NCBI RefSeq assembly: GCF_947648125.1 | Contig: NZ_CANSMR010000028.1 | Span: 1-64,000, forward strand | Direction of reading: 5' to 3' | Length of the DNA: 64,000 bases | Origin: an uncultured Bradyrhizobium sp. | Lineage (GTDB): Bacteria > Pseudomonadota > Alphaproteobacteria > Rhizobiales > Xanthobacteraceae | Shown here: piece after piece, positions 22,793-59,593 of the stretch | Position numbering within the stretch: position 1 is the stretch's first letter | Layout of the letters: each line of letters opens with the position of its first letter | Made by a program: the position numbers and the translations under genes | Notes under the pieces: model-generated | The model's input: only the letters and a program-made list of their open reading frames with translations | What the model was told of the DNA's origin: nothing | Databases searched by the model: none

Positions 22793-24214
22793 CTATTTCA
22801 AGCCGAACCACAGCGTGGCGATGCCGAGAAACGAGAAGAAGCCGACCACGTCGGTGACGGTCGTGACGAAGGTGCCGGAGGCGACCGCGGGATCGGCGCG
22901 CACCCGTTCCAGCACCATCGGAATCAGGATGCCGCCGAGCGCGCCGGCGACCAGGTTGCAGATGATCGCAAGCCCGATCACGATGCCGAGGCCGGGGATC
23001 TTGAACCAGGCCACCGCGGCGATGCCGGTGATGACGGCAAAGGCGAGACCGTTGACGAGCCCGACCATGGTCTCGCGCAGCACCACGCGCGTCGCGTTGA
23101 ACGCGCCGAGCTCGCGGGTGGCGAGCGCGCGCACCGCGACCGTCATGGTCTGGGTCGCGGCATTGCCGCCCTGGCTCGCCACGATCGGCGCCAGCACGGC
23201 GAGCGCCACCATCTTCTCGAGCTGGCCCTCGAACAGGCCGAGCACCGAGGAGGCCAGGAACGCGGTGGCGAGATTGACCAGCAGCCAGTTGAAGCGGCCG
23301 CGGGCGATGGTCCAGACCGTGTCGGACAGCTCTTCGGGATGGGTGACGCCGCCTAGCGCCTTGAGGTCCTCGTCGGCCTCCTCCTCGATCACGTCGACGA
23401 CGTCGTCGATGGTGATCACGCCGACCAGCCGCTCGGTGGTGTCGACCACGGGAGCCGCGACCAGATTGTACTTGCCGAACATCCGCGCGACCTCTTCCTG
23501 GTCCTCCAGCGCGGAGACCCGGCGACGGTCCTCGTCGATCAGGTCCTTGACCGGGACCGGGCGGCGCGTGCGCAGCAGCACGTCGAGCGGCACCGCGCCG
23601 AGCAGATGCTTGTCGGCGTCGACCACATAGATCTCGTAGAAGCGGTCCGGCAGATCGGGCGTGTCGCGCATGTAGTCGATCGCCTGCCCGACTTTCCAGT
23701 CCGGCGGCACCGCGATGAACTCGGTCTGCATCCGCCGGCCGGCGGAATTCTCCGGATACAGCAGGCTGCGCTCGATGTCCTCGCGCTCGGCCGCCGGGAG
23801 CTTCTCCAGGATCTCTTCCTGGTCCTCCTCGTCGAGGCTTTCCAGCAGCTCGACGGCGTCGTCGGATTCGAGCTCGCGGACGCCCTCGGCAACGGTCTCC
23901 GGCTCGAGTTCCTCGAGGATCTCCTCGCGGACCGTCTCGTCGACCTCGTTGAGCGCCGAGAAGTCGAAGTCCGTGCCGGTGATCTCGACCAGGGTGACGC
24001 GGTCGTCGGGCTCCAGCGCCTCGATCAGGTCGCCGAGATCGGCCTCGTGCAGTTCCGCCACCACCTCGCACAGCAGGGGCCGGTCGGCGGCGTGGATGGC
24101 CCGGGTGATCTCCGTGACGAATTCGGGGCGGAGCTGGCCCTCCTCGTCCCGCATCGGCATCCCGGCGAGCGGGGCGGCCTCGGCGGGTTCGGCAATGTCG
24201 ATATTCTCGGCCAT
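22793..24214 (-). CDS. mgtE: Magnesium transporter MgtE
   Basis: The 473-residue protein has the full MgtE layout. It shows an acidic N-domain (about 35-160) with ELHEADLGDLIEALEPDDR, two CBS domains (about 160-290), and five hydrophobic segments with ASQGGNAATQTMTVAVRALA and the pore-region ATRELGAFNATRVVLRE. It lets Mg2+ into the cell and is gated by the N/CBS domains sensing cytosolic Mg2+. I chose the ATG at 24214. The same frame extends to 25000, but that part overlaps the divergent deacetylase and is not MgtE-like. Confidence 0.95.
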   Translation of the reverse strand: MAENIDIAEPAEAAPLAGMPMRDEEGQLRPEFVTEITRAIHAADRPLLCEVVAELHEADLGDLIEALEPDDRVTLVEITGTDFDFSALNEVDETVREEILEELEPETVAEGVRELESDDAVELLESLDEEDQEEILEKLPAAEREDIERSLLYPENSAGRRMQTEFIAVPPDWKVGQAIDYMRDTPDLPDRFYEIYVVDADKHLLGAVPLDVLLRTRRPVPVKDLIDEDRRRVSALEDQEEVARMFGKYNLVAAPVVDTTERLVGVITIDDVVDVIEEEADEDLKALGGVTHPEELSDTVWTIARGRFNWLLVNLATAFLASSVLGLFEGQLEKMVALAVLAPIVASQGGNAATQTMTVAVRALATRELGAFNATRVVLRETMVGLVNGLAFAVITGIAAVAWFKIPGLGIVIGLAIICNLVAGALGGILIPMVLERVRADPAVASGTFVTTVTDVVGFFSFLGIATLWFGLK

Positions 24215-24298
24215 GCCGTGTTTCGCCGGTTTGACAGGAAGAGAAAAACTGCTCTGATGAGTGCGGAACGGATTACCTAATCGGTGGGGCCCAGTGCA

Positions 24299-25114
24299 AT
24301 GAGAAAGATGTCGAGCGCACCGCGACCGATCCTGAACACTGTCGCGGCGCTGATCGCGCTTGCGCCATTTGCGCTGATCGGCTCGGCGAAGGCCGCCGAA
24401 TGCCCGCGCAAGGACGCGCTCGGCACCGCGCGTGTGCTCGAGGTCGACCCTGCGACCTATCCGCGCGTCGGGTTGAAGAGCTTTCCGCAGACCCTGCCGC
24501 TGCGCGATGGCGAGGTTGTGCTGACTTTCGACGACGGGCCGACACCTGGTGTCACCGACAAGGTGCTGACGGCGCTGGCAACCGAATGCGTGCAGGCCAC
24601 CTTCTTCATGGTCGGCCGCAATGCGGCCGATCATCCCGATATGGTCCGCAAGATCGCGCGGCTCGGCCACAGCATCGGCTATCACAGCTGGGACCATCCG
24701 CATCTCAACAAAATGCCGACGGATCAGGCCGAGGCGAACATCAACCGGGGGATCGAAGCGATCCAGACGGCCCTGCGCGGCACCGCGAGCACGGTCCCGA
24801 GCACGCCGTTCTTCCGGTTCCCCTATTTCGAGTCGACGCCCGCCCTGCTCGGGCGCATGGAAAAGCGCGGTATCGCGGTGTTCGGCGCCGATTTCTGGGC
24901 CAGCGACTGGAACAAGATGACCCCCGAGGAGGAACTCAAGCTGCTCACCGGGCGGCTCGAGGGCCATCGCAAGGGAATTATCCTGCTGCATGACCCGCAA
25001 ATGCGAACAGCGCAGATGCTGCCCGCCTTCCTAAGGTACCTGCAGGAGCATAATTATCACGTCGTCCACATCGTCCCGGCGGCGTTGAAAACCGTGTCCG
25101 ACCGGACACATTGA
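24299..25114 (+). CDS. Polysaccharide deacetylase (NodB-type), first of a tandem pair
   Basis: The 271-residue exported protein has a signal peptide (about 1-33) and a NodB homology domain: metal-binding D78-D79 in LTFDDGP, H129/H133 in GYHSWDHPH, an RFPYFE motif and ILLHDPQMRT near the end. It probably removes acetyl groups from a cell-surface or peptidoglycan sugar in the periplasm. I chose the ATG at 24299; a GTG at 24284 is also in frame. It is divergent from mgtE by 84 bases and is followed by a second, related deacetylase. Confidence 0.9.
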   Translation: MRKMSSAPRPILNTVAALIALAPFALIGSAKAAECPRKDALGTARVLEVDPATYPRVGLKSFPQTLPLRDGEVVLTFDDGPTPGVTDKVLTALATECVQATFFMVGRNAADHPDMVRKIARLGHSIGYHSWDHPHLNKMPTDQAEANINRGIEAIQTALRGTASTVPSTPFFRFPYFESTPALLGRMEKRGIAVFGADFWASDWNKMTPEEELKLLTGRLEGHRKGIILLHDPQMRTAQMLPAFLRYLQEHNYHVVHIVPAALKTVSDRTH

Positions 25115-25194
25115 ACCCGGGACCCAAGGTGGATTACAGACCGTTAAGGCGGCATTCATGGGGCCGCACCTAAGGATTCGTCAGTGCGTTTGGA

Positions 25195-26586
25195 ATGCGG
25201 CCGAGATTGATGATTGCAGACGTCCTGGTGATGATCCGGAAGCGGTCGCGGACCGTGATCGGCGCGGCGCTGCTGGGCTGCTGCTTCATGACGCCGCAGG
25301 CCGGCCTCGCCGCGGATTGCCCGGGTAACCCCAACGCACTCGGCACCTCGCGGACCATCGTCGTCGATCCCACGGAGCATCCGCGGATCGGCACCATGCA
25401 GTATCCGGAGACGCTGCCGCTCGCCGATCACGAGGTGGTGCTGACCTTCGACGACGGACCGCTGCCGAAATACAGCAACCAGGTGCTGGCCATTCTCGCC
25501 AGCCAGTGCGTCAAGGCAACCTTCTTCACCATCGGCTCCCAGGCCCGGTTCAATCCGGAGGGCGTGCGCAGGCTGATCGCTGCGGGGCATACCGTCGGCA
25601 CGCACAGCCAGAATCATCCGTTGACGATGAACAAGATGCCGCTCGAGCGGGTGCGGCAGGAGGTCGACGACGGCATCGCCTCGACGCTCGCCGCCCTCAA
25701 CGGCGACAAGAGCAAGCTGGCGCCGTTCTTCCGGATCCCCGGCCTGATGCGCGCCGAGATCCCCGAAGCCTATCTGGCGTCGCAGGGCATCCAGGTCTGG
25801 AGCGCCGACTTCCCGGCTGACGACTGGCGTCACATCTCGCCGCAGCGGGTTTACGACCTCGCGATCCAGCGGATCGAGGCCAAGCACAAGGGCATCCTGC
25901 TGCTGCACGACATCCAGCCGCGCACGGTTGCGGCGCTGCCGCGCATCCTCAACACGCTGAAGGAGCGCGGCTACCGCATCGTCCATGTCGTGCCCGCGAC
26001 ACCGGACCGCCCGGCGACGCCGACCGAGCCGCAGCAATGGTTCATGCGTCCGCCGACCGAGACGGTCGCGATCACGCGCTGGCCCAAAATACCGAACTTC
26101 GTCTTCACCGCAACGCGGACGCTGCCGGCGCCGGTGTTTGCCGACATGGATTGGCGCGATGGCGACGTCCTAGATCACGCGCAGCGCGCGCGCGTCGGCG
26201 CATCCGTCCGCACGCTGTGGCCGCAGGCGCAGCTCGCCCAGCCGGCGTCGCCCTCGACATTGCCGATCCCGGCGGCTGACGTGTTTCGCATTCCCGAAGC
26301 GCTGGACGTGACCCTGCTTGCGGCCCGCTCGGCGGCCGAACGTCGTCTGGCACAGCGCGCGGCAGCTGTCCCCGGAGCTGGCGCACCGCGCGCGCAGGCG
26401 ATCTCCGCGCGTCAGGCCAGGCATCCGAAACAGGCCGCGCATCAGATTCCCGCTGCGGCCCACGGCCGGCTTCACGGCGCGCCGCTGCATATCGCCCCGC
26501 CTGCCGCGAGCAATGCGTCGGTCCATGTCGCCAGGCGCACCCCGCGCGCCGAGGCCTCGGCGGCAAGCAAGCGCGAGCCTGAATAG
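25195..26586 (+). CDS. Polysaccharide deacetylase with Ala/Pro/His-rich C-terminal extension
   Basis: The 463-residue paralogue of the preceding gene shares the order of motifs: cleavable signal (about 1-39), D86-D87 in LTFDDGP, H137/H141 in GTHSQNHP, FFRIPG, and ILLLHDIQPRT. The catalytic part ends near residue 290. The remaining ~170 residues are unique: low complexity, basic, rich in Ala, Arg, Pro and His, possibly binding the cell wall or anionic polymer. The gap to the first deacetylase is 80 bases, so both probably come from one promoter. Confidence 0.9.
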   Translation: MRPRLMIADVLVMIRKRSRTVIGAALLGCCFMTPQAGLAADCPGNPNALGTSRTIVVDPTEHPRIGTMQYPETLPLADHEVVLTFDDGPLPKYSNQVLAILASQCVKATFFTIGSQARFNPEGVRRLIAAGHTVGTHSQNHPLTMNKMPLERVRQEVDDGIASTLAALNGDKSKLAPFFRIPGLMRAEIPEAYLASQGIQVWSADFPADDWRHISPQRVYDLAIQRIEAKHKGILLLHDIQPRTVAALPRILNTLKERGYRIVHVVPATPDRPATPTEPQQWFMRPPTETVAITRWPKIPNFVFTATRTLPAPVFADMDWRDGDVLDHAQRARVGASVRTLWPQAQLAQPASPSTLPIPAADVFRIPEALDVTLLAARSAAERRLAQRAAAVPGAGAPRAQAISARQARHPKQAAHQIPAAAHGRLHGAPLHIAPPAASNASVHVARRTPRAEASAASKREPE

Positions 26587-26629
26587 GGCGCGATCTAGCT
26601 GACCACGATCTTAGCGACGCAAAGCAGGA

Positions 26630-26968
26630 TCACCGCCGCCAGGAGAAGATGTCGATATAGGATTTGATCTCGCCGGCATGCCTGAGCTCGGTGACATCGG
26701 CGACGATCTGCTTGCGCGAGGCGACAGCGTTGGGCCCCTCGCCGGCTGCAGCCGCCAGCCGCCGCGTTTCGCCTTCGAGGCGCTCGATCCGTTGGAAGAA
26801 ATAGAACGAGCGCAGGCCCGAGAGGGCATGCATCGTTGCATAGACCAGGACCAGGATCGCGACCGTCGCGCGCTGCTCGTATTTCTCCAGCAGGTTCAGC
26901 GTGAAATAGACCAGCCCCAGGAACACGAAGTTGGAGAGGATACGGTAGGCGTAGCTGGCAAAGATCAT
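26630..26968 (-). CDS. Small hypothetical membrane protein
   Basis: The 112-residue protein begins MIFASYAYRILSNFVFLGLV. Two hydrophobic segments (about 7-25 and 38-55) are followed by a charged helix with RIERLEGETRRLAAAAGEG, probably coiled coil. I chose the ATG at 26968, with GGAGCGCC just upstream, over 27058. It converges on the deacetylase. The function is unknown. Confidence 0.7.
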   Translation of the reverse strand: MIFASYAYRILSNFVFLGLVYFTLNLLEKYEQRATVAILVLVYATMHALSGLRSFYFFQRIERLEGETRRLAAAAGEGPNAVASRKQIVADVTELRHAGEIKSYIDIFSWRR

Positions 26969-27112
26969 CAGGCGCTCCGGGTGGGGCAGGCTTGGCCGCG
27001 CGATCGCAAGAGGCAGCCTTTGGTCGGCAGCGACATACCAACAGGGCCATGCACCCACTACTCTACCCGACCGGTGTTACAGGACCGCATCGACCACAGC
27101 TTCTCGTCACCA

Positions 27113-27212: not shown

Positions 27213-30200
27213 ATGCAAATCGTTCGTTCCGTTCGCCTCTGGATGAAGGAAGGCAGATCCGACAAGCTCTATGAAGTCGATCTGGTCGATCTGGAACGCG
27301 CCGCCGACGCACGATATCTCGTCAACTTCAGATATGGCCGTCGCGGCACCTCGTTGAGGGATGGAACCAAGACTCCGTCGCCGGTCACTCGCTCGAACGC
27401 CGAGAAGCTGTTCGATAGTGTCGTAGTATCCAAGATCAACGATGGCTATCGCCGCATCGACGGCGACGCACCACCGCTGGCCGTTCGCGACGCCGGCGAT
27501 GCCCACGGACGCGACACGGAATTGCTCAAGAAGCTCGCGCTCTGTGCACGAAGTGCGTGGCCCGAGAAGGAGCGCGACCGCCTGTTCTGGCGCCTTGGTG
27601 TGATCCGGCTGGCCGCCGCCTATCCCCAACTCGCCGCCTTCGCCGAGAAGGTCGGCGCGGCAAACGCGAGCTACAGCCTGGTATATGCGCTGGCGCGCTG
27701 TGGCGGTGCGGACGCCGCCCATCTGTTGCGCAGCTGCGCCGACCTCAATGTCAGCCTGGTGACGCGCGACTACGCCGCCTATGCCCTCGCAAGCGAACTG
27801 ATGGGCGCTCGGCAATTGTCGCCACGGCTGTCGCTGCCGCGAACCACGGATGCTGCGGCGACACGCGACATCGAGATGGCGCTGACGAACGGCAATGGCG
27901 CGGGCCTGACGCAGGCCCTGCTCGCGGCGAACTCGGCGCAACCGGGCTTCGCCAATCAGTTCCTCATTGCTCTTGCCCACCACGCGCTCGCAGACGACGC
28001 CGCGCGCAAGACGCTGCTCGCGGCTGTGCATGCGATGAGCCCACGACCGCCCTACGTGCAGGTGCTGCGACGCCTGTTCAAATATGCCGATCTCATCGAC
28101 GACGGCCCGCTGTTCGCCGCGACTGCACGACAGTTCGAGCTGGCTACGCCGATGTATTATCGCGGCCGGGTCTACAACGACCGAGTCTGGGTGCCCGGTT
28201 CGCGCCAGGCGCTGAAGCTCAGCGAGGAACAGCACAGCGCGGCTCCGCGCATCGCGCTGTCCGACCAGACCCTGTTCTACTTCAAGCGACGCGCCTGGCG
28301 CATGCTGCGCAAGCGTGCCGAACTCGGACAGGACGCCTTCACGGCGATGGCGGGTGAGCTCCTCCTCGCCTTCACCGACGCCGACGGCATCAAGCCGGCG
28401 ACATGGACCGAGCATGTCCGTATCGACGGCAGCTTTCGTCCCGTTCCCCATTCCGCCGAGGCGCTGAGCCGCGTGTGGAGCGTCAGCCACCTGCTGCATG
28501 CCGGGGGCCAGACCAGCCGCTTCAATGACAAGGCTCTCACCCATCGCCATGTCGGCACGCGCACGCCCGCGCAGCGCGAGGAAGCCTTTCCCGCGCTATG
28601 GGATGCGCAGCCGCAGCGGCTGCTGCGCATCGCGACGCTGGCGCGCAATCATGCGGCGGCGCGCTTCGCGGCAGAGGCGCTGCGGCAGGGCCCGCCGCGG
28701 CCCGATGCGATGGACGTGGCTGCGATCGGCGGCCTGCTGGCCTCGCCCTATCCCGAGGTCACCGCGCTCGCGGCCACGATCGCGCGGCGCCTGATCGATG
28801 CCGACAAGGCCGATGCGGCATTGATCGCCGCGCTGCTCGAGGCGTCGGCGCCCGACATGCGCGACCTGGCCATCCGTGCCATTGACGACCGCACCGACTG
28901 GCCGTGGGCCGACGCCGCCCTTGCACGCGCCGCGCTGACGAGCCCGCACGATCACGTGCAAGGCCGCATGCGCGGCTGGCTACGCGACCGAGCGCCTTCA
29001 CGGGACCAACGCGCCCACGCGACGGAGGCGTTCGCAGCCTGGCTCGCGCAGTTGCCGCCAGAACTTGACGATCTGCAGCGCGCCGGCCTCACTGCCGCTC
29101 TCGCGCTGCTGCCGCAACTATGGCCGGATCGCGACTGCCCGCTGCAGCCGGAGGTGATCGAAAGCCTGACCGGTCACGCCAGCCCCGACGTGCAGGCAGC
29201 CAGCATCCAGCTCATCGCCGTCACCCCGACGCGGCCTGACGACCTGCCGACAGCGTTTTGGCAGGCGATCCTGCAGGCCGACGCGCCGGAAATCCGTATT
29301 GCCTCGATGAGCCTGCTGGCACGGCTCGACGACGCCGCGCTCGCGCAACATCGCGATGGCATCGCTTTGGCGGCCACCGGCGCTCATGCAGGGCTGCGAG
29401 CGGCTGCGCGGCCACTCGTTGCACGCCTCGCGGCAGCCGACGAGGCTTTCGCCGTTCGGTTGCGCGACGCGCTGATGACTGGCCTCTTTCGCGCCGAGCC
29501 GGTCGAAGGCCATGCCGCCGACATGGTCGCACTCTTCGTCGAGGCCTTGCCGCAGGCAGCGGCTGCCATCGACGATGGCACCCTATGGCGCCTGCTGCAA
29601 GCGCGCGCGGCCGGCGCCCGCATGCTGGGCGCAAAGCTGCTGGAGAGCAGCGACCCGTCGCGCTTCTCGGTCCGTCAACTCGCCCGCCTCGGCAACCATT
29701 CGTTTGCCGCCGTGCGCCGCTTCGCGCTGCATGCGTTTGCGACCGACGAGCCGCGCTTCCGCGCCGACCCGCAGAATGCCGTGCTGCTGGTCGAGAGCGA
29801 ATGGGACGATGTACGAACAGTCGCGGTGAACCGCCTCACGGCATGGCCCAGCGAAGCGCTGCCGGCGGCGGCGCTGGCAGTGATGGCGGACTCGACCGTG
29901 CCCGCGGTGCAGGACGGCGCCCGCCTGCTGCTGCGGCGCAGCCTCGCTGACGGCGATGTCGCCGAGGTGCTGGGCCGCGTATTGGAGCACCCCTCCGGCA
30001 GCTTCCATCTCTTCGTCACCGAGCTGATCACCGGCGATTCGCTGGCGGATGCGGCGATCTTCGCCAAATTCCTCACCCAGGCCCGCATCATCCTGATGCA
30101 GATCAACCGCGGGCGCATCGCCAAGGACCGGATCTTCACGTCACTACGCAACGAGGCGCTGGCGCACCGGGATCGCGCAGCGGCGATCGCACAGCTGCTG

Positions 30201-30365
30201 CACGACTTCACGCTCAGCGTGACCCTGCGTGACAAGGCGCCCGCACTGATCATCCTGCGCGACATCGCTCATGCCTGGCCGGATCTCAGCCTGCCCGTCA
30301 CCGTGGCCCGCGCCGGCCGCACGCCGCCGGGCGGCGGCTCGCAAACCAGCGGAACCGCCGCATGA
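27213..30365 (+). CDS. WGR-domain/HEAT(ARM)-repeat protein, retron-associated
   Basis: The 1050-residue protein has an N-terminal WGR-type domain (about 1-85; the signature reads YGRRGTS in place of WGR-x-G). The rest is an alpha-helical solenoid in which short Ala/Leu/Asp-rich helix pairs recur from about residue 100 to 1030, consistent with HEAT/ARM repeats. WGR domains bind DNA ends or nucleic acid in PARPs and MolR proteins. It has no enzyme motif that I can see. The ATGA overlap (30362-30365) couples it to the SWIM protein. It is a plausible effector or scaffold of the retron at 32.1-34.2 kb, and matches the ARM component I recall for type XIII retrons. Confidence 0.85.
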   Translation: MQIVRSVRLWMKEGRSDKLYEVDLVDLERAADARYLVNFRYGRRGTSLRDGTKTPSPVTRSNAEKLFDSVVVSKINDGYRRIDGDAPPLAVRDAGDAHGRDTELLKKLALCARSAWPEKERDRLFWRLGVIRLAAAYPQLAAFAEKVGAANASYSLVYALARCGGADAAHLLRSCADLNVSLVTRDYAAYALASELMGARQLSPRLSLPRTTDAAATRDIEMALTNGNGAGLTQALLAANSAQPGFANQFLIALAHHALADDAARKTLLAAVHAMSPRPPYVQVLRRLFKYADLIDDGPLFAATARQFELATPMYYRGRVYNDRVWVPGSRQALKLSEEQHSAAPRIALSDQTLFYFKRRAWRMLRKRAELGQDAFTAMAGELLLAFTDADGIKPATWTEHVRIDGSFRPVPHSAEALSRVWSVSHLLHAGGQTSRFNDKALTHRHVGTRTPAQREEAFPALWDAQPQRLLRIATLARNHAAARFAAEALRQGPPRPDAMDVAAIGGLLASPYPEVTALAATIARRLIDADKADAALIAALLEASAPDMRDLAIRAIDDRTDWPWADAALARAALTSPHDHVQGRMRGWLRDRAPSRDQRAHATEAFAAWLAQLPPELDDLQRAGLTAALALLPQLWPDRDCPLQPEVIESLTGHASPDVQAASIQLIAVTPTRPDDLPTAFWQAILQADAPEIRIASMSLLARLDDAALAQHRDGIALAATGAHAGLRAAARPLVARLAAADEAFAVRLRDALMTGLFRAEPVEGHAADMVALFVEALPQAAAAIDDGTLWRLLQARAAGARMLGAKLLESSDPSRFSVRQLARLGNHSFAAVRRFALHAFATDEPRFRADPQNAVLLVESEWDDVRTVAVNRLTAWPSEALPAAALAVMADSTVPAVQDGARLLLRRSLADGDVAEVLGRVLEHPSGSFHLFVTELITGDSLADAAIFAKFLTQARIILMQINRGRIAKDRIFTSLRNEALAHRDRAAAIAQLLHDFTLSVTLRDKAPALIILRDIAHAWPDLSLPVTVARAGRTPPGGGSQTSGTAA

Positions 30366-32032
30366 ATTTCGCGTATCGATTTCTCGGCAGCAGCAGCGCG
30401 TCGTCCGACGCCGCCTCGTCGTCGTTCGCCTTCGCGCCGGACACGCTGCGCCAGCCGACTTTCTTCACCGGCAAGGTCGCGCGTCACCTCGCGTTTCGTG
30501 AGGCGATCTCCGCGCTGCATCACGTCGTCGTCTCGGACCTGCGCTTCAAGCCGCGCGATCGCACCGCCTATTTCGAGTGGCTGAAGCAGAACGAGGCCAA
30601 CTTCCTCGCCGAGGCGACAGCGCAATCCGCGGCGCTCAAGCCGCGCATCGCGGAATTGCAGGACCGCATCCGCGGCTTCGACCGCGAGCGCGATCGGCTG
30701 ATGAAGCCGTTCTGGGCGGCGCGGCAATCTTATTTCAACTACCTCTACAAGCAGAACCGCGACGCCTGGATCGTGCTCGATCCGGTAATCACAGTGCATC
30801 CGGACGAGATTTTCTTCGAGTGCTTCAGCCTCGACGAATCGAGCTACGGGCGGCTGTCGTGCGACCACGACGTGTTCGAGAGCCTCGGCGAGATGGCGTT
30901 CGGCACCACCAATATCGACTACAGCCACGCCCTCTACGACGAATTCCAGAAGATCCGCTCCTACCGCGACACCACGCTCACCATCGATCCGTCCGGATTC
31001 GAGGTGCAGACCGGCGACGACCTCGACTTCCGCGAGGAGAAGATCGACCTGCCGGATAGCTGGGTGCGCGGCTTCCTGCAGGTGTCGAGTGCCATGACCC
31101 TGCCGGCGCATGTGTTCGACCTGCACCCCGTGGACATGGCCAATATCCTCACCCGCCTCGCGCAGAGGAAGGAGCAAGCCGGCCCGCGCTCTCTGCGATT
31201 CGTGCTGAAGCCGGACGCGCCGGTGGAGGTCGTCATCGAGCCATGGCACGACCGGCTCACCTTCCGCCGCTCGATCTATCGCGGCCCGGCGCCCGCCGAG
31301 ATCCGCATCTGGGGCCGGCGGCGGCTTGCCATTCTCGGGCGGGCGCTGCCGCTGGCGCGGTCGGTGCGGGTGCATTTGAGCGGGACCGGCCTGCCGTCGT
31401 TCTTCGTCGTCGATTTTGGCGGTCTGCGCTTCACGCTCGGCCTGTCCGGCTGGACCGCGAACGACTGGTCGTCCGCCGGGCAATTCGACCTGCTCGCGCC
31501 GCGCCACAAGGTCGACAACGACACGGCCCAACGCGTTTTCGCAGCGCTCAGCAAATCCCACGCGGCGAGCGCCGCCGAGCTGGCGCGACAGACCGGTGTC
31601 GACCAGGCGCTGGTGCATGCGGCGCTCACCGCCTACACTCAGGCCGGACGCGTCATGTTCGACCTCGACAAGTCGCTGTACCGCCTGCGCGAGCTGACGC
31701 GCGAGCCGCTGTCCCCCGCCCGGCTGCGCTTCGCCAGCGCGCAGGAGGAGAAAGCCAATCGCCTGATCAACGCCAACCTCGTGACGATCGGCAACATAGA
31801 TCGCAACCAGGGCGTTCGCGCGATCAACGGCAGCGTGCTCGACAACGCCCGCACCGAGCAGGTGAATCTCGTCATCGACGATGACGACCGTCTCGTCGAG
31901 GCGCGGTGCAGCTGTCATTTCTACGGCCACAACAAGATGATGCGCGGCCCTTGCGAACACATGCTCGCATTGCGCCGGATCTTCCATTCACAAATCGAGG
32001 GCGTCGCCCAGGATGGACCCGCCATCGCATGA
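30362..32032 (+). CDS. Winged-helix/SWIM zinc-finger protein, retron-associated
   Basis: The 556-residue protein has an N-terminal region rich in Ser (1-25) and a helical segment (70-130). A mixed alpha/beta middle part follows, then a winged-helix-like segment (about 388-445: AQRVFAALSKSH, AAELARQTGVDQALVHAALT, GRVMFDLDKSLYRLREL). It ends in a C-terminal SWIM zinc finger with ligands C516, C518, C531 and H533. SWIM domains bind DNA or proteins. The architecture fits the 'WHSWIM' partner of type XIII retrons as I recall that classification. It overlaps the WGR/HEAT gene by 4 bases and ends 68 bases before the predicted retron RNA. Confidence 0.87.
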   Translation: MNFAYRFLGSSSASSDAASSSFAFAPDTLRQPTFFTGKVARHLAFREAISALHHVVVSDLRFKPRDRTAYFEWLKQNEANFLAEATAQSAALKPRIAELQDRIRGFDRERDRLMKPFWAARQSYFNYLYKQNRDAWIVLDPVITVHPDEIFFECFSLDESSYGRLSCDHDVFESLGEMAFGTTNIDYSHALYDEFQKIRSYRDTTLTIDPSGFEVQTGDDLDFREEKIDLPDSWVRGFLQVSSAMTLPAHVFDLHPVDMANILTRLAQRKEQAGPRSLRFVLKPDAPVEVVIEPWHDRLTFRRSIYRGPAPAEIRIWGRRRLAILGRALPLARSVRVHLSGTGLPSFFVVDFGGLRFTLGLSGWTANDWSSAGQFDLLAPRHKVDNDTAQRVFAALSKSHAASAAELARQTGVDQALVHAALTAYTQAGRVMFDLDKSLYRLRELTREPLSPARLRFASAQEEKANRLINANLVTIGNIDRNQGVRAINGSVLDNARTEQVNLVIDDDDRLVEARCSCHFYGHNKMMRGPCEHMLALRRIFHSQIEGVAQDGPAIA

Positions 32033-32064
32033 GTGACATGAGAGCTGCCATCTGCAGAGCCGGC

Positions 32065-32094
32065 TTGAACCGGCCACGACAATTCGCGTATCAC
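32065..32094 (+). promoter_or_regulatory. Candidate promoter of the retron ncRNA
   Basis: TTGAAC (32065-32070) and TATCAC (32089-32094) are separated by 18 bases, a workable sigma-70-type spacing. Transcription would begin about 7 bases downstream, at about 32101, which is exactly where the a1 arm of the predicted ncRNA starts. The -10 box is weak, and transcription may instead come through from the upstream genes. Confidence 0.45.
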
Positions 32095-32099
32095 TGCAT

Positions 32100-32335
32100 T
32101 CGGAAGGGCGCAGGCCGGTCAGGACCTTGCAATCCGGGCGGCGTATCGCCGTCCTTGCACTATGACCACGCATGCGTCACTGGCCCGATCTTCACTGGGC
32201 CGGGGCAGTCCACCCGTACGCAATCGCAGAATGGGTTCCTTGAACCCAATTGCGTACGGGTGGACGCCCCGGCGTCGAGTGGATCGATCCAGTTCTTAGA
32301 AGAGACGAAGGCAACCCGGCCTGCGCCCTTTCCGA
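32100..32335 (+). ncRNA. Predicted retron ncRNA (msr-msd)
   Basis: The 352-base gap before the reverse transcriptase folds as retron RNAs do. The outer a1/a2 stem pairs 32100-32118 with 32316-32335 (19 base pairs, one bulged base at 32329). Just inside lies an msr-type hairpin, 32136-32143 with 32147-32154 (loop TAT, one G-T pair). Then comes a very long msd hairpin: 32208-32224 pairs with 32249-32265 (17 bp) and 32199-32206 with 32266-32273 (8 bp), with a single bulged A at 32207. Its tip forms a second hairpin, TGGGTTC-CTT-GAACCCA (32232-32248). A 12-base palindrome, TGGATCGATCCA (32280-32291), sits before a2. The branching guanosine is probably G122 or G123 of 32122-32123, just after a1. 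No protein-coding sense is expected here. Confidence 0.88.
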
Positions 32336-32384
32336 TCCCCCTCCACAAGACTGCCGCGCCCCTCCTGAACGGAGGGCTGGCCGC

Positions 32385-34196
32385 GTGAACGAGACCATTG
32401 CTCCCGGCACGCTGACGCGTCAGGAACTCTACGACCGCATCCGCCAGTCGTCGAAGGACGAGGTCATCCTCGAAGAGATGATCCGGCTCGGTTTCTGGCC
32501 CGACGGCGAAGACGCACCGGCGCCGGCCGCGGACGTGATCCGCGCCCGCGCAGACGCGATGCGCGAACTCACCGAACTGCAGCGTCAGAACGCCACGCTC
32601 GGCGATCCCGAGCGGGCGCTGAAGGAAATGCACAAGCGCCGCAAGGCCGAAGCGATGGCGCGGCGGCAGGAGACCAAGCGTCGCAACGCGGAGGCATGCC
32701 AAAGCCGGGCCTTTGCCTGGTACGATCGGCGCAAGCGCGACGTGCTCTATCTCGGCGAGGACGTCTCGCGGGGCCTTCACACCCGTACGGCCACCACGCC
32801 CTTGCACGACGGCCTGCCCCCGCTCGCCGATGCCAAGGCGCTGGCTGACGCGATGGGCATAGCACTGGGCGAGCTGCGCTTCCTCGCCTTCAACAGAAAA
32901 GTGGCGTTGGTCAACCACTATCAGCGCTTCACGATCCCCAAGAAGAGCGGCGGCGAGCGATTGATCTCGGCGCCGATGCCGCGTCTCAAGCGCACGCAAT
33001 ATTGGGTGCTGGACAACGTTCTCGCACGGGTGCCACTCCATGATGCCGCGCACGGCTTTGCAGCGCAGCGCTCCATCCTGACCAATGCGCGCAACCATGT
33101 CGGCCGCGACGTGGTGATCAATCTCGATCTCAAGGATTTCTTCCCGACCTTGACCTACGCTCGCGTCAAGGGCCTGTTCGAGGCGCTGGGCTATGCCGAA
33201 GCGGTCGCGATTCCGCTCGCGCTGTTGTGCACCGAGCCGATGGTCGACGAAGTGGCGCTCGACGGCGAACGCCACTTCGTTGCCGACGGTCCGCGGCTGC
33301 TGCCGCAGGGCGCGCCGACCAGCCCGGCGATCACCAACCTGATCTGCCGCAAGCTCGACCGACGTCTTGTGGGGCTCGCGCGCACACTTGGTTTCGTCTA
33401 CAGCCGCTACGCCGACGATCTGACCTTCTCCGGCTCGGGCGAAGCCTTGAAGAAGATCGGCACCTTGCTCAAGGCCGTGCACGGCATCGTCGAGGCCGAA
33501 GGATTCAGGGTCCATCCGGACAAGACGCGCGTGATGCGCCGCTCGACGCGCCAGGAGGTCACCGGCCTCACCGTCAACGAGGCGGTAGCCGTGCCGCGCG
33601 ACCTGCTGCGCCGTTACCGCGCCGTGCTGCAACAGGTCGAGCGCCACGGGCCGGCTGGCAAGCATTTCGGCCCCGGCAAGGACGTGATCCGGTCGCTGCT
33701 CGGCTTCGGCCATTTCGCCGCGATGGTGGATCCGGAAAGCGGCACGCCGTTGTTGCAGCGAGCGCAGCGCCTCGCCGCACAGTATGGACCCGTCCCTTCC
33801 GCGCGGCGTCCGACTCGCGCCGCATTCCGCAAGGCCGCGGCCGCCGGCCAGACGCCGCCCGGCCGGCAATGGAATCCCGCCGAGCGGCCGCCGCCACCGC
33901 CGGATCCGGTGTTGGTCGCGCTGGCACGACAGGACGAAAAGAAGCGGACGGCGCAGGCGCGCGCCGCAGCGCCGGGCCCCTCGCGCATGCCCAACGTTCC
34001 GCCACCGCCGGTGAGCGTCACGCGCGTGGTCGGCCCGCAGGCTGCTCCCCCGTCGGCACCGAGCGGGACAAGGCAGCCGTGGTTCGTCACGGCACTGGTG
34101 ATCGTCGCGGCACTCGCCGTGCTGCTGCTCCCTGGCGGCCCCGCAATCGCCGGCGCGATGCTGTTTCTTTACTTCAGCCGTTGGTGGAAATGGTGA
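32385..34196 (+). CDS. Retron reverse transcriptase with C-terminal membrane anchor
   Basis: The 603-residue protein contains a group of retron RT hallmarks: NAxxH (N234-H238 in ILTNARNHVG), the first catalytic Asp (D248 in LDLKDFFPT), LPQGAPTSP (306-314), YADD (342-345) and VTG (392-394). It would copy the adjacent msd RNA into msDNA. The GTG at 32385 is the likely start: GGAGGG ends 8 bases upstream, and the start falls after a2. An in-frame ATG at 32250 would run through the msd hairpin and is rejected. Unusual parts are a charged helical N-terminal extension (about 1-130), a Pro-rich linker (about 490-565) and a C-terminal hydrophobic segment (about 566-596), suggesting anchoring in the membrane. 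Retron RTs are normally 300-400 residues. Confidence 0.93.
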   Translation: MNETIAPGTLTRQELYDRIRQSSKDEVILEEMIRLGFWPDGEDAPAPAADVIRARADAMRELTELQRQNATLGDPERALKEMHKRRKAEAMARRQETKRRNAEACQSRAFAWYDRRKRDVLYLGEDVSRGLHTRTATTPLHDGLPPLADAKALADAMGIALGELRFLAFNRKVALVNHYQRFTIPKKSGGERLISAPMPRLKRTQYWVLDNVLARVPLHDAAHGFAAQRSILTNARNHVGRDVVINLDLKDFFPTLTYARVKGLFEALGYAEAVAIPLALLCTEPMVDEVALDGERHFVADGPRLLPQGAPTSPAITNLICRKLDRRLVGLARTLGFVYSRYADDLTFSGSGEALKKIGTLLKAVHGIVEAEGFRVHPDKTRVMRRSTRQEVTGLTVNEAVAVPRDLLRRYRAVLQQVERHGPAGKHFGPGKDVIRSLLGFGHFAAMVDPESGTPLLQRAQRLAAQYGPVPSARRPTRAAFRKAAAAGQTPPGRQWNPAERPPPPPDPVLVALARQDEKKRTAQARAAAPGPSRMPNVPPPPVSVTRVVGPQAAPPSAPSGTRQPWFVTALVIVAALAVLLLPGGPAIAGAMLFLYFSRWWKW

Positions 34197-38004: not shown

Positions 38005-38581
38005 ACGTCGTGCGATGAGCAATTTAGTCAGGCTCATCGCCCCGCCGCACAGCCATCATTCGGATCGACGTGGCATTTCGGCTCAGTGTCCGAACCGCGG
38101 CCGCCTAACGGCTGTTGCCCTTGGGTGAGGCCCTTCCCTCCACGACTTCCGCCGAGAGCTGCCTCCCGTTGTTCATCGCTTCTCAGGTAGTATGGCCTCA
38201 TCCGACTTCTCATCCACGTACATGCTCGGCGTGCGGCTGTCGCCTTCCCGAGCCGGCCCGGCACACGAGTCCGGGCATGGATGAGACCTCCCAGGTTCCG
38301 CGCAAAAAACGTCTCCACGTGCACAAGGTCTCCGACTGTGCGAGGTTCGGCCCATGCAAGCCATTTCGTCATGGGAGATGTCGCCTTCTCTTCAGCAGAA
38401 CGAGATCGGCACCTCGGAAGCAGCCCCGTTTCGCAGCTCAATACTCGGCCCGTGGTCTCCCCTGTGAACGCTTCACGTCGGCCCTCGCGGGACGCCGCGC
38501 ATCACTCGGGGTCGGGGTGGTTGCTAGACCTTCCCCGGGGGGACCTGCACCTCCTATTCTTTGCCAGCTTGCCTGGCGCAC
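38005..38581 (-). mobile_element. 5' fragment of a group II intron with truncated maturase start
   Basis: On the minus strand the fragment begins at 38581 with GTGCGCC, the 5' consensus (GUGYG) of group II introns. It continues through about 400 bases of structured leader without a long frame. At 38177 a short frame starts MNNGRQLSAEVVEGRASPKG, typical of the N-terminus of intron-encoded reverse transcriptase/maturases, then meets a TAG. Readthrough keeps family-like sequence (VRTLSRNATSIRM) until homology stops near 38010. Everything downstream in the intron (RT domains, domains V and VI) is missing here. Confidence 0.65.
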
Positions 38582-38786: not shown

Positions 38787-39341
38787 TTACTCGTCCTTCC
38801 ATTTGATCGAGCAGCCAATCGACGCCTTTTGGTCAGCCGGCGCCAGGCCGGTCGTCGCAATCGCGCGCATGGCCTCGACAAGCTCTCGGGGCGCCCCCGC
38901 GCGACGCGGAGTTGTGCGGCCTTCGTCGAGCCGGCCGCGATACTTGAGCTTGCGGTCGGCATTGTAACCGAAGAAGTCCGGCGTACAGACTGCCCCATAT
39001 GCCCGAGCGACTGTCTGGGTCTCGTCGTGGAGATATGGAAACGGGAAATCATGAGCCTTCGCGAAACGCTTCATATTCTCAAATGAGTCTTCGGGGTAGC
39101 TCGCCGCATCGTTCGAGCAAATCGCCGCAAAGCCTATGCTCTCCGACATCAGCACGCAGGCGTCCGAAACCATGCGGTCGATCACCGCTTTAACAAAGGG
39201 ACAATGGTTGCAGATGAAGACGACGACCGTGCCTTTTTCGCCCGCAAGGTCGTCCAGTGCGTAAGTCTTGCCGTCGGTGGCAGGAAGCCGGAACTCCGCC
39301 GCCGGCGTATCAAGAACGACTTGGGTAGCTGTTGTCGCCAT
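38787..39341 (-). CDS. Thioredoxin-fold protein (AhpC/TSA-like)
   Basis: The 184-residue protein has the redoxin fold, with AAEFRLPATDGKTYALDDLA and VVVFICNHCPFVKAVIDRM. The active-site region is NHCPFVK, so a single resolving-type Cys replaces CxxC, as in many DUF-type thioredoxin-family proteins. A further C is in YGAVCTPDFFGY. I chose the ATG at 39341, preceded by AAGGAGGTGCGAT; the longer frame to 39617 adds sequence unlike the family. It may act as a peroxidase or disulfide reductase. Confidence 0.88.
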   Translation of the reverse strand: MATTATQVVLDTPAAEFRLPATDGKTYALDDLAGEKGTVVVFICNHCPFVKAVIDRMVSDACVLMSESIGFAAICSNDAASYPEDSFENMKRFAKAHDFPFPYLHDETQTVARAYGAVCTPDFFGYNADRKLKYRGRLDEGRTTPRRAGAPRELVEAMRAIATTGLAPADQKASIGCSIKWKDE

Positions 39342-39617
39342 ATCGCACCTCCTTGTGCCCAAATATATGCTGACGACGGCCTGCCGGGGCACGGTTTCCA
39401 AAGCCTGCTCGCCAGTCGCGTCGTTTTGGCCATACGTCAGCCATCTCCGGTCGACTCTTAACAGCCGGCATTTGAACGAGCGCGAGATTTCGTCGGTGTG
39501 GGCCACGAACGGACGATAGCACCTCCAATGCCCCGGCGCGTGGGCGCTGGCTGCGACCATAATAAACTTCTGTCTAAAGTTTGTTTGTCCGGCGGCTCTG
39601 AATGATTGTCTCGACAC

Positions 39618-58501: not shown

Positions 58502-59593
58502 TCCGACTGGTTTCACCGTTGAGGCACACGGAGAGCAAACTAACCGCACGCGGCTTCGGCACGGTGAGTAACTCTCCTTCGCCCCTCGACACAGCAATCT
58601 CCGGCGGCGCCTGTCATTGATGGTGTTTGCAGGCTCATCGCCAATCACCACGACTTCGCCATCTTCGAAAGCGCACCAGAAGTCAGGGCCCTTTCCTCAG
58701 CCAGCATTACCCGGCTTCAACGGTCATACGGCCCTGTCCGACTCCCGCCATGGCCGCCGCCTTCGCGACGTTGAGGCCGCTACCCTCGCCCGTGACGGGT
58801 CTCCCCCGATTACCCGAAACCACCATTCCGACGTGCCGTGCCCACTACCCCGGCGGATCGAGCGGGTGCGCTTGTCGATTGCTTCCCCGCTCATGCTGCC
58901 TACCCCTTTTGACCGGAGGGTCGGCATCCGCATTAGGACTTTCGAGGCCTGCTCAGGCTTCACTCACGTTACGGCCCGCCGCATTGCTCAACCGCCTAAA
59001 GCGGCCTTTGTCACGAGGCTCCAGCCCTGCCGGTTACCCGACCGAACCGCTCGTCAGCTACCAGATCAATCGACAACTCTCTGGGTGGAATCTTCCTCCA
59101 CTAGTGATCCGCGCCTTCAGGGCGCACGGTCAAAAAGCGCCGTTTTGACGGTCCGCCGGTCGCGTCCGGTTTGCCACTGTCATCGGACGTCTTCGGTACC
59201 TTCTGGCACTTCGCATTCGGGCCAATAGCAGCTATTCAGGAAGACCCGCGAGGCGGATATGAGGCGGTGGGCGAGCTCAAGGATGTGGACGCCCTGCCCG
59301 CACGTCTTTTGATGGACATGCGGTTCGGGATACCGCGCGTAGCGCTCACGGATAAGAGTACGAACCCACCGATTTCTGCGCTGGGCTACGCCACTGCCCT
59401 CTCGTGAGCAAACAGCGGTTTTCCTTCGCGGATCGGTGGTTCAAAGAATGCTGCGACGACCACAAGAGCAAACGCTCGACCACGCGATCAAACATGGAGG
59501 ATTAGCGGAAGAGCAATCTAGAATTCGCAGCGGGTAACAACGTGGGAGTAAAAGGATCGCGAAAACATTTTTCGCATCAATGACTTATTCTCT

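What the first reader, a model, noticed from the sequence alone, without database searches (positions are those of the whole stretch)
27213..34196. Complete retron locus: WGR/HEAT protein, winged-helix SWIM protein, ncRNA and reverse transcriptase
Seen: two overlapping plus-strand genes, then a highly structured non-coding gap, then an RT with NAxxH, YADD and VTG motifs. Known: those motifs define retron RTs, and I recall published type XIII retrons pairing an RT with ARM-repeat and winged-helix-SWIM proteins. Inference: the two proteins are effector parts of an anti-phage retron controlled by msDNA. A WGR domain on the ARM protein and a membrane-anchored RT are features I do not recall described. 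This is the best candidate system in the window.
Basis: partly seen in the sequence, partly recalled or inferred. Interest (0 to 1): 0.95.

Follow-up and report, generated by a model that had tools for sequence, protein, structure and literature searches.

The report
Retron with a PCNA-like clamp protein
This Bradyrhizobium locus has all the parts of a type XIII retron, a reverse-transcriptase system likely used against phages; one of its two partner proteins is predicted to fold like the DNA sliding clamp PCNA, and pieces of its template hairpin, likely captured copies of the DNA it makes, sit elsewhere in its own genome and in those of its relatives.

Summary
27213-34196 carries WGR-HEAT and SWIM genes, a structured RNA and a retron RT; all three proteins match PADLOC type XIII models (E 8e-252, 2e-225, 5e-179). 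So it is a new member of a published class, not a new class. The RT starts at GTG 32385, not 32250. Four additions, not found in the held papers:
(1) The ncRNA is a classical msr-msd (a1/a2 32102-32118/32316-32332, predicted branch G 32129) with strong covariation across phyla; it is found in the 48 of 55 loci that show both partner genes and in none of the other 7.
(3) Twelve fragment sites in 242 Bradyrhizobium genomes all lie inside 32165-32307; two end exactly at the predicted cDNA start, four match their own host's msd perfectly: likely captured msDNA, so the system probably works in vivo.
(4) Hydrophobic RT tails recur in alpha- and gammaproteobacteria; two Bacteroidota relatives carry four tandem, different ncRNAs.
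Defence and the killing step are inferred, untested.

The parts
27213..30365 (+). WGR-HEAT protein, 1050 aa: N-terminal WGR beta domain (about residues 1-80) and long alpha solenoid
   Evidence: PADLOC WGR_XIII 7.9e-252; AlphaFold2 model mean pLDDT 86, pTM 0.61; PDB matches are helical solenoids
30362..32032 (+). SWIM_XIII protein, 556 aa
   Evidence: PADLOC SWIM_XIII 1.7e-225
30461..31459 (+). predicted PCNA-fold region of the SWIM protein (residues 34-366, with a helical insertion at about 59-141)
31514..31690 (+). winged-helix region of the SWIM protein (about residues 385-443)
   Evidence: helices and strands in the model; weak Pfam DprA_WH/HTH_65 matches below cutoff
31874..31972 (+). SWIM zinc finger (residues 505-537, CxC...CxH)
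   Evidence: Pfam PF04434 E 1.3e-4, above cutoff; 21 of 24 aligned members at E<=0.1
32102..32332 (+). retron ncRNA (a1-msr-msd-a2)
   Evidence: covariation; profile hits in 48 of 55 loci, 32 of which helped to build the profile
32102..32118 (+). arm a1
   Evidence: pairs with 32316-32332
32316..32332 (+). arm a2
32125..32129 (+). CCTT inner a1 helix and predicted branch G (32129)
   Evidence: CCTT pairs with AAGG 32308-32311; two of its four pairs have double changes in far relatives
32165..32307 (-). predicted extent of the reverse-transcribed DNA (msd copy)
   Evidence: 12 captured fragment sites all lie inside; two end at 32307
32198..32276 (+). long msd hairpin
   Evidence: helices 6 and 7; coordinates
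32385..34196 (+). retron reverse transcriptase, 603 aa (GTG start)
   Evidence: PADLOC RT_XIII 4.4e-179; Pfam RVT_1 5.2e-21 on the longer ORF
34080..34178 (+). predicted C-terminal membrane hairpin of the RT (about residues 566-598)
   Evidence: sequence; a 19-residue stretch of mean hydropathy 1.6 or more in the last 70 residues of 30 of 31 alphaproteobacterial RTs with a 3' end

Best explanation
The locus is a type XIII retron with all its parts, whose reverse transcriptase, carrying a predicted membrane tail, likely copies the msd hairpin of the ncRNA at 32102-32332 into a branched msDNA, and this complex likely holds a predicted PCNA-fold/winged-helix/SWIM protein and a WGR-HEAT protein inactive until a phage disturbs it. 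Shown: gene content, order and conservation, ncRNA covariation, RT motifs, dispersed msd fragments. Predicted: clamp fold, WGR-HEAT architecture, membrane hairpin. Inferred: priming from the 2'-OH of G32129 and copying from 32307 to about 32165 (about 143 nt); complex formation at the membrane; release on phage attack. Untested: that the released pair then seizes DNA, the WGR-HEAT solenoid loading or steering the clamp-fold protein, and blocks replication without a classical nuclease. I commit to this non-enzymatic, DNA-clamping mode of action, because no catalytic family was recognised in either protein while three DNA-associated modules (PCNA fold, winged helix, WGR) were.
For: Family. Association: both partner genes in 48 of 55 loci with an RT relative, and the ncRNA profile hits the same 48 (32 of the 48 went into the profile); 7 of 7 genomes in the order sample for SWIM and RT. 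ncRNA: 59 of 77 pairs with double changes, 469 cells against 164 in shuffles, covariation 0.382 against 0.151 (0 of 500) and 0.092-0.158 when slid. msDNA made in vivo: 12 dispersed fragment sites, all within 32165-32307, two ending at 32307, own-host identity 70/70, 81/81, 59/59, 30/30; a same-length stretch of the RT gene gave no non-orthologous hit at E<=1e-6 (in both searches only 3 candidates per genome were scored); occupied against empty sites. Clamp fold. Tail. Coordinated loss: two Bradyrhizobium relatives keep only scars without ncRNA and SWIM gene.
Against: No phage assay, msDNA gel or toxicity test. The SWIM model is of middling confidence (mean pLDDT 72, pTM 0.60) and no sequence method found PCNA, so ring formation is unknown. 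No PIP-box is conserved in the three proteins. In 111 Methylobacterium genomes, 21 with a full ncRNA, no captured fragment was seen. Bacteroidota and Myxococcota/delta RTs lack the hydrophobic tail (0 of 5 and 0 of 6), so a membrane is not needed by the whole class. RT_XIII-type RTs occur without visible partners: L062 (1.7e-159) and its near-twin L065 have no WGR or SWIM hit. In 8 of 10 Bradyrhizobium loci with enough upstream DNA the retron has the same left neighbour, which also fits a housekeeping role.
Confidence: 0.55

Rival explanations
1. Toxin-antitoxin retron in which the WGR-HEAT protein is the toxin and the clamp-fold SWIM protein is only the adaptor that reads the msDNA. Release of the HEAT protein would poison a host process other than DNA replication.
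For: The SWIM protein is far better conserved (50-55% identity to gammaproteobacterial and Bacteroidota relatives) than the WGR-HEAT protein (20-28%), as expected for a core adaptor with a fast-changing partner. PADLOC also holds HEAT-ARM_XIII models without WGR in the name.
Against: No catalytic family was found in the WGR-HEAT protein; fast change is also typical of sensors.
Confidence: 0.25
2. Not a defence system but a resident DNA-maintenance retron: msDNA, clamp-fold and WGR proteins act in repair or genome stability in Bradyrhizobium.
For: Same left neighbour gene in 8 of 10 Bradyrhizobium loci with enough upstream DNA (L018 and L020 lack it); PCNA and WGR folds belong to replication and repair elsewhere (established knowledge); msd pieces land in chromosomes.
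Against: Patchy presence: 14 of 242 Bradyrhizobium genomes have the full ncRNA; two loss scars; relatives in several phyla; characterised retrons are antiphage (recalled).
Confidence: 0.15
3. The dispersed fragments are not msDNA but palindromic DNA copied by replication template switching or spread as an ordinary hairpin repeat.
For: The own-genome fragment replaces 18 nt inside a terminator-like hairpin, with TTCC shared with the G004 site; most fragments centre on the hairpin; the two G001 fragments are at contig ends and could be assembly joins.
Against: None of 12 leaves 32165-32307 although the 233-nt query was longer on both sides (uniform placement probability about 1e-4, interval chosen after seeing the data); two stop exactly at the cDNA start predicted before that search (note), 31 nt beyond the foot of the main hairpin; none in 111 Methylobacterium genomes, 21 of which have a ncRNA with an equally long hairpin.
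Confidence: 0.2

Closest known systems
Retron type XIII (PADLOC RT_XIII, WGR_XIII, SWIM_XIII; class of Mestre et al. 2020, recalled, paper not held)
   Same: All three proteins; this locus is a member.
   Different: Nothing excludes it. Clamp fold, msDNA ends, tail and tandem ncRNAs were not found described for the class in the held papers (searches; listings seen).
Retron Ec86 (Eco1), closest solved RT
   Same: RT core (profile E 1.2e-67); branch-G-after-a1 layout (Eco1 sequence recalled, not fetched).
   Different: Different partner proteins; about 125 residues stand before the stretch that matches Ec86 RT, and a long tail follows it.
PCNA / viral sliding clamps
   Same: Predicted fold of residues 34-366 of the SWIM protein.
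   Different: 8-15% identity in the rows, a helical insertion at about 59-141, fused winged helix and SWIM finger; no conserved PIP-box in the three proteins; ring not tested.
Captured msDNA copies in Nannocystis exedens ('retronphotons', recalled; no held paper has the word)
   Same: Chromosomal copies of an msd region away from the retron.
   Different: Here short, partial, at 12 sites in several strains, some identical to the host's own msd, with empty sites in relatives for two of them.

Membership tests
Retron type XIII | RT of the type XIII family | tested here: met
   RT_XIII 4.4e-179, next 1e-98; 24 of 24 aligned relatives match it at E<=1e-30
Retron type XIII | WGR/HEAT-ARM partner gene | tested here: met
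   WGR_XIII 7.9e-252
Retron type XIII | winged-helix SWIM partner gene | tested here: met
   SWIM_XIII 1.7e-225; Pfam SWIM; the winged helix rests on weak matches and the model
Retron (any type) | RT motifs NAxxH, YADD, VTG (motif list from the finding and recall) | tested here: met
Retron (any type) | structured ncRNA with a1/a2 arms, msr and msd next to the RT | tested here: met
Retron (any type) | msDNA with 2'-5' branch | not testable with these tools
   indirect: captured msd fragments
Retron (any type) | antiphage activity | not testable with these tools
   none
PCNA sliding clamp (SWIM protein residues 34-366) | two-domain clamp fold | tested here: met
PCNA sliding clamp (SWIM protein residues 34-366) | PCNA sequence family | tested here: inconclusive
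   no PCNA match by Pfam or PDB profile
PCNA sliding clamp (SWIM protein residues 34-366) | closed ring around DNA | not tested
   no complex was predicted
Group II intron RT | group II RT/maturase family | tested here: not met
   TIGR04416 54 bits, cutoff 300

The most novel reading that the evidence does not exclude
Type XIII retrons are an immune system built around a sliding clamp: membrane-tethered RT and msDNA guard a PCNA-like ring protein that a WGR-HEAT solenoid loads onto DNA when the msDNA is attacked, choking replication. In Bradyrhizobium the msDNA also keeps being pasted into the chromosome, so retrons edit their hosts in nature, and in some Bacteroidota one RT makes four different msDNAs from a tandem ncRNA array, a small repertoire of tripwires.
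Probability: 0.25. Interest if true: 0.92.

Novelty: new member of a known kind. Interest (0 to 1): 0.7.

Why it matters
As far as my searches of the held papers show (one paper has both 'retron' and 'type XIII'), type XIII has no studied mechanism. A predicted clamp-fold partner gives a concrete hypothesis for what it does to the cell, the covariation-backed ncRNA gives exact msDNA ends to test and a part list for retron engineering in rhizobia, and the captured msd fragments offer natural evidence that msDNA of a retron enters chromosomes. Tandem ncRNAs would mean that one retron can carry several sensors.

Tried and rejected
Rejected: RT start at TTG 32250 (inside the msd; relatives start at 32385). 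Rejected: gap as a known Rfam RNA (only a chance snoRNA match, E 0.5). Phage-borne origin: with an alignment of 24 RTs, 96 viral-contig stretches encode a relative, 80 were kept; none of the 80 matched before residue 108 of the RT and the best identity was 42%, so none looks like type XIII. Phage records: none covers 80% of the RT; plasmid records: one does, Methylobacterium bullatum. PIP-box or beta-clamp motifs conserved in the three proteins: no. WGR domain and SWIM family against PDB sequences: nothing significant. Captured fragments in 111 Methylobacterium genomes: none, two stray weak hits (E 6e-5 and 7e-4); in phages none; on plasmids 7 Bradyrhizobium records with the same 101-nt match, and one Methylobacterium record. 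Empty site of L165: only the right flank found. Literature: class paper and experimental census not held; ten paper searches, of which I saw listings; passages seen in PMC11953036 (type XIII only in a list of PADLOC calls), PMC12548924, PMC13405049 and PMC11555353, none of the last three naming type XIII.

Rows dropped or limits: the SWIM alignment leaves out L037 (a stop in the stretch I gave); protein alignments use 24 members each, A1 27 ncRNAs, A5 41 of 57 cores (near-identical ones left out, chosen by me). Of the hits I did not count three reverse-strand hits of the hairpin on its own retron (G865, G861, G000) nor two weak msr hits (G924, G815; 25-27 nt, E 5e-4 and 1e-3), as the RT control gives many hits of that strength. 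Searches scored 3 candidates per genome, 7, so counts are lower bounds. In one search 14 hits cover all or nearly all of the query; the fifteenth (G843, 41-233) I take for a remnant of the gene without having examined it. Phylum labels were set by me from record titles.
Full report
What is there. The window lies in a Bradyrhizobium genome: two genomes that the search tool puts in the same genus carry contigs whose retron coordinates coincide, to within a few bases, with B. lablabi CCBAU 23086 and B. jicamae PAC68 records. At 27213-30365 and 30362-32032 two plus-strand genes overlap by 4 nt, followed by a 352-nt non-coding stretch and an RT gene 32385-34196. PADLOC assigns all three proteins to type XIII retrons: WGR_XIII 7.9e-252, SWIM_XIII 1.7e-225, RT_XIII 5.2e-179, with the next RT model at 1.8e-98. 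NCBIfam has no model above cutoff for any of them.

The RT. Profile search against solved structures puts retron Ec86 RT first (1.2e-67), and the first nine rows are named retron RTs. In a tree of 46 RT rows, 21 RTs with WGR and SWIM neighbours form one clade (100/98); L061, which also has both neighbours, falls just outside it, and three Bradyrhizobium RTs whose best PADLOC model is the generic RT family fall far away. The tree has long branches and its deeper joins are weak. All named motif residues are the same in 24 of 24 RTs.

Association. Of 55 loci with an RT relative, tblastn finds both partner genes in 48; a nucleotide profile of the ncRNA finds it in the same 48 and in none of the other 7. 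32 of the 48 supplied rows of that profile, so only 16 are independent finds, and L061 scores weakly (1.8e-11). The 7: L022 and L060 are degraded Bradyrhizobium loci; L045 is cut off upstream by its contig end; L063 has a SWIM_XIII protein (4.5e-171) but no WGR hit; L062 has an RT_XIII-type RT (1.7e-159) and L067 an RT closer to RT_other, and neither they nor L065, which pairs with L062 in the tree, show either partner. So RT_XIII-like RTs without visible partners exist. In one of the 48 (L059, Beggiatoa) the WGR gene lies after the RT. Independent sample: of 297 genomes of the order, 7 have a SWIM hit at E<=1e-20 and the same 7 have RT_XIII at E<=1e-140; six pairs are adjacent, the seventh is split over two contigs of a draft. 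Three further genomes have weaker RT_XIII-like RTs (E 1e-89 to 1e-98) and no SWIM. The WGR protein was not searched in that sample.

The ncRNA. Arms a1 32102-32118 and a2 32316-32332 enclose the RNA; from a1 start to a2 end it measures 218-238 nt in the 20 sequences that I trimmed by their arms, from alphaproteobacteria to Bacteroidota and Myxococcota. On 27 alphaproteobacterial sequences 28 of 82 predicted pairs show double changes. On 41 sequences from all groups, with a structure taken from the alphaproteobacterial consensus, 84.7% of cells pair against 68.9% in shuffles, 59 of 77 pairs have double changes against 47.3, 469 cells against 164, and the covariation score is 0.382 against 0.151, 0 of 500 shuffles reaching any of these; sliding the partners by 1-3 columns gives 0.092-0.158. 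The count of further pair types is less striking (157 against 146.8, 9 of 500). The inner helix CCTT 32125-32128 with AAGG 32308-32311 is the same in all 27 sequences, but two of its four pairs have double changes in far relatives. The G directly after it, 32129, is invariant in both alignments and stands where Eco1 has its branch G (recalled), so I predict priming there and a cDNA that starts opposite 32307. These positions were noted, before the next search.

Captured copies. A search of 242 Bradyrhizobium genomes with the 233-nt ncRNA core found 14 full-length copies and, at E<=1e-6, fragments at 12 other sites (one site is shared by six genomes; three hits of the hairpin on its own opposite strand left out). 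Reading them with flanks: all 12 lie within positions 64-206, that is 32165-32307; none reaches a2 or the msr. Two, L165 and L169, stop exactly at 206, the predicted cDNA start, and six others stop at 169-176, the foot of the long hairpin. If fragments of these lengths fell uniformly on the query, confinement to that interval would have probability about 1e-4, with the interval chosen after seeing the data. A 233-nt stretch of the RT gene in the same 242 genomes gave 15 hits that I take as the gene or its remnant and nothing else below 9e-6. Both searches scored only 3 candidates per genome. Where the host still has a retron, fragments match their own host's msd better than or as well as the window's: G860 70/70, G001 81/81 and 59/59, G000 (this genome) 30/30, G852 72/74, G856 91%. 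Two sites have an empty counterpart: in G000 contig C21 30 nt stand in place of 18 nt of a terminator-like hairpin seen in G004, with TTCC shared at one border, and G010 has a similar unbroken site; in G860 the 70-nt hairpin stands in a site that in G024 is continuous but for two bases, without a target duplication, while the flank a little to the left differs. The two G001 fragments lie at contig ends and could be assembly joins. In 111 Methylobacterium genomes, 21 with a full ncRNA, no fragments were found apart from two weak stray hits. I read the fragments as msDNA caught during DNA repair; palindrome-driven template switching is the rival.

The tail of the RT. A 19-residue window of mean hydropathy 1.6 or more occurs in the last 70 residues in 30 of 31 alphaproteobacterial RTs with a 3' end (the exception, L048, ends early in the frame read), 8 of 9 gammaproteobacterial, 0 of 5 Bacteroidota and 0 of 6 Myxococcota/delta RTs, three of the last six lacking the partner pair. 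Four of the five Bacteroidota and two Myxococcota tails end in a motif with tryptophan instead; the fifth Bacteroidota tail ends in lysines. The sequences of the hydrophobic tails differ, their place is kept. I predict a membrane hairpin here.

Tandem ncRNAs. In L042 and L044 (Bacteroidota MAGs) four copies stand at 221-241 nt spacing between SWIM and RT genes; the copies fold with arms of their own and their msd stems differ. L036 and L059 have two copies each. Five further RT_XIII loci from that phylum, read only 1500 nt upstream, have one hit (L150 weak, L151, L152) or none (L149, L153).

Neighbourhood and loss. The left neighbour gene (26630-27058) is found beside the retron in 8 of 10 Bradyrhizobium loci with enough upstream DNA; L018 and L020 lack it, so the place is not universal. 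L022 (a MAG) keeps these neighbours but has lost both partner genes and the ncRNA; its RT lacks the first residues and reads CADD for YADD. L060 keeps the first third of the WGR gene and the second half of the RT gene side by side. Both losses leave no partner pair, as expected if a partner without its msDNA is harmful, though two cases prove little.

How it likely works. RT and ncRNA make msDNA (supported by covariation and fragments, not seen); the msDNA complex holds the two partner proteins (inferred from other retrons); phage attack on the msDNA frees them (inferred); they act on DNA without a classical nuclease (my choice, from clamp fold, winged helix and WGR; untested). The main rivals are a toxic WGR-HEAT protein and a maintenance role.

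Verdict. The locus belongs to a known class by every defining feature that could be tested. What is new is knowledge about the class: predicted clamp fold, ncRNA anatomy with natural msDNA traces, membrane tail, tandem ncRNAs. None of these was found in the held papers, but the defining class paper and an experimental census were not available.

Noticed in passing
32165-32307 and L154-L170: Short msd fragments at 12 sites in Bradyrhizobium genomes; one site is shared by six genomes, in five of them on a 979-982 kb contig (similar records are listed as plasmids).
   Followed up: yes
L042:6031-7000, L044:5004-6120: Four tandem ncRNAs with different msd stems and own a1/a2 arms; two copies in L036 and L059.
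   Followed up: partly
L022:6917-8479, L060:5955-7879: Degraded type XIII loci: ncRNA and SWIM gene gone, RT truncated; L022 reads CADD for YADD.
   Followed up: partly
38326-38548 (-) and 58964-59103 (-): Two Rfam group II intron matches (143 and 99 bits); the ORF at 38790-39617 beside the first is a redoxin, not an intron RT.
   Followed up: no
22793-27058: MgtE-like gene, two polysaccharide deacetylases and a small ORF form the left neighbourhood of the retron in several Bradyrhizobium loci, but not in L018 and L020.
   Followed up: partly
L062:1330-4635, L067:3211-6510: Archangium and Williamsia RT relatives have about 1100-aa upstream ORFs (possibly not genes) without a PADLOC match at 1e-10: perhaps other, unnamed partners.
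   Followed up: no
32233-32247: The msd tip GGGTTC...GAACCC is the same in the 27 alphaproteobacterial sequences while the stem below changes freely, a candidate protein-binding element of the msDNA (one further alphaproteobacterium, L023, differs).
   Followed up: no
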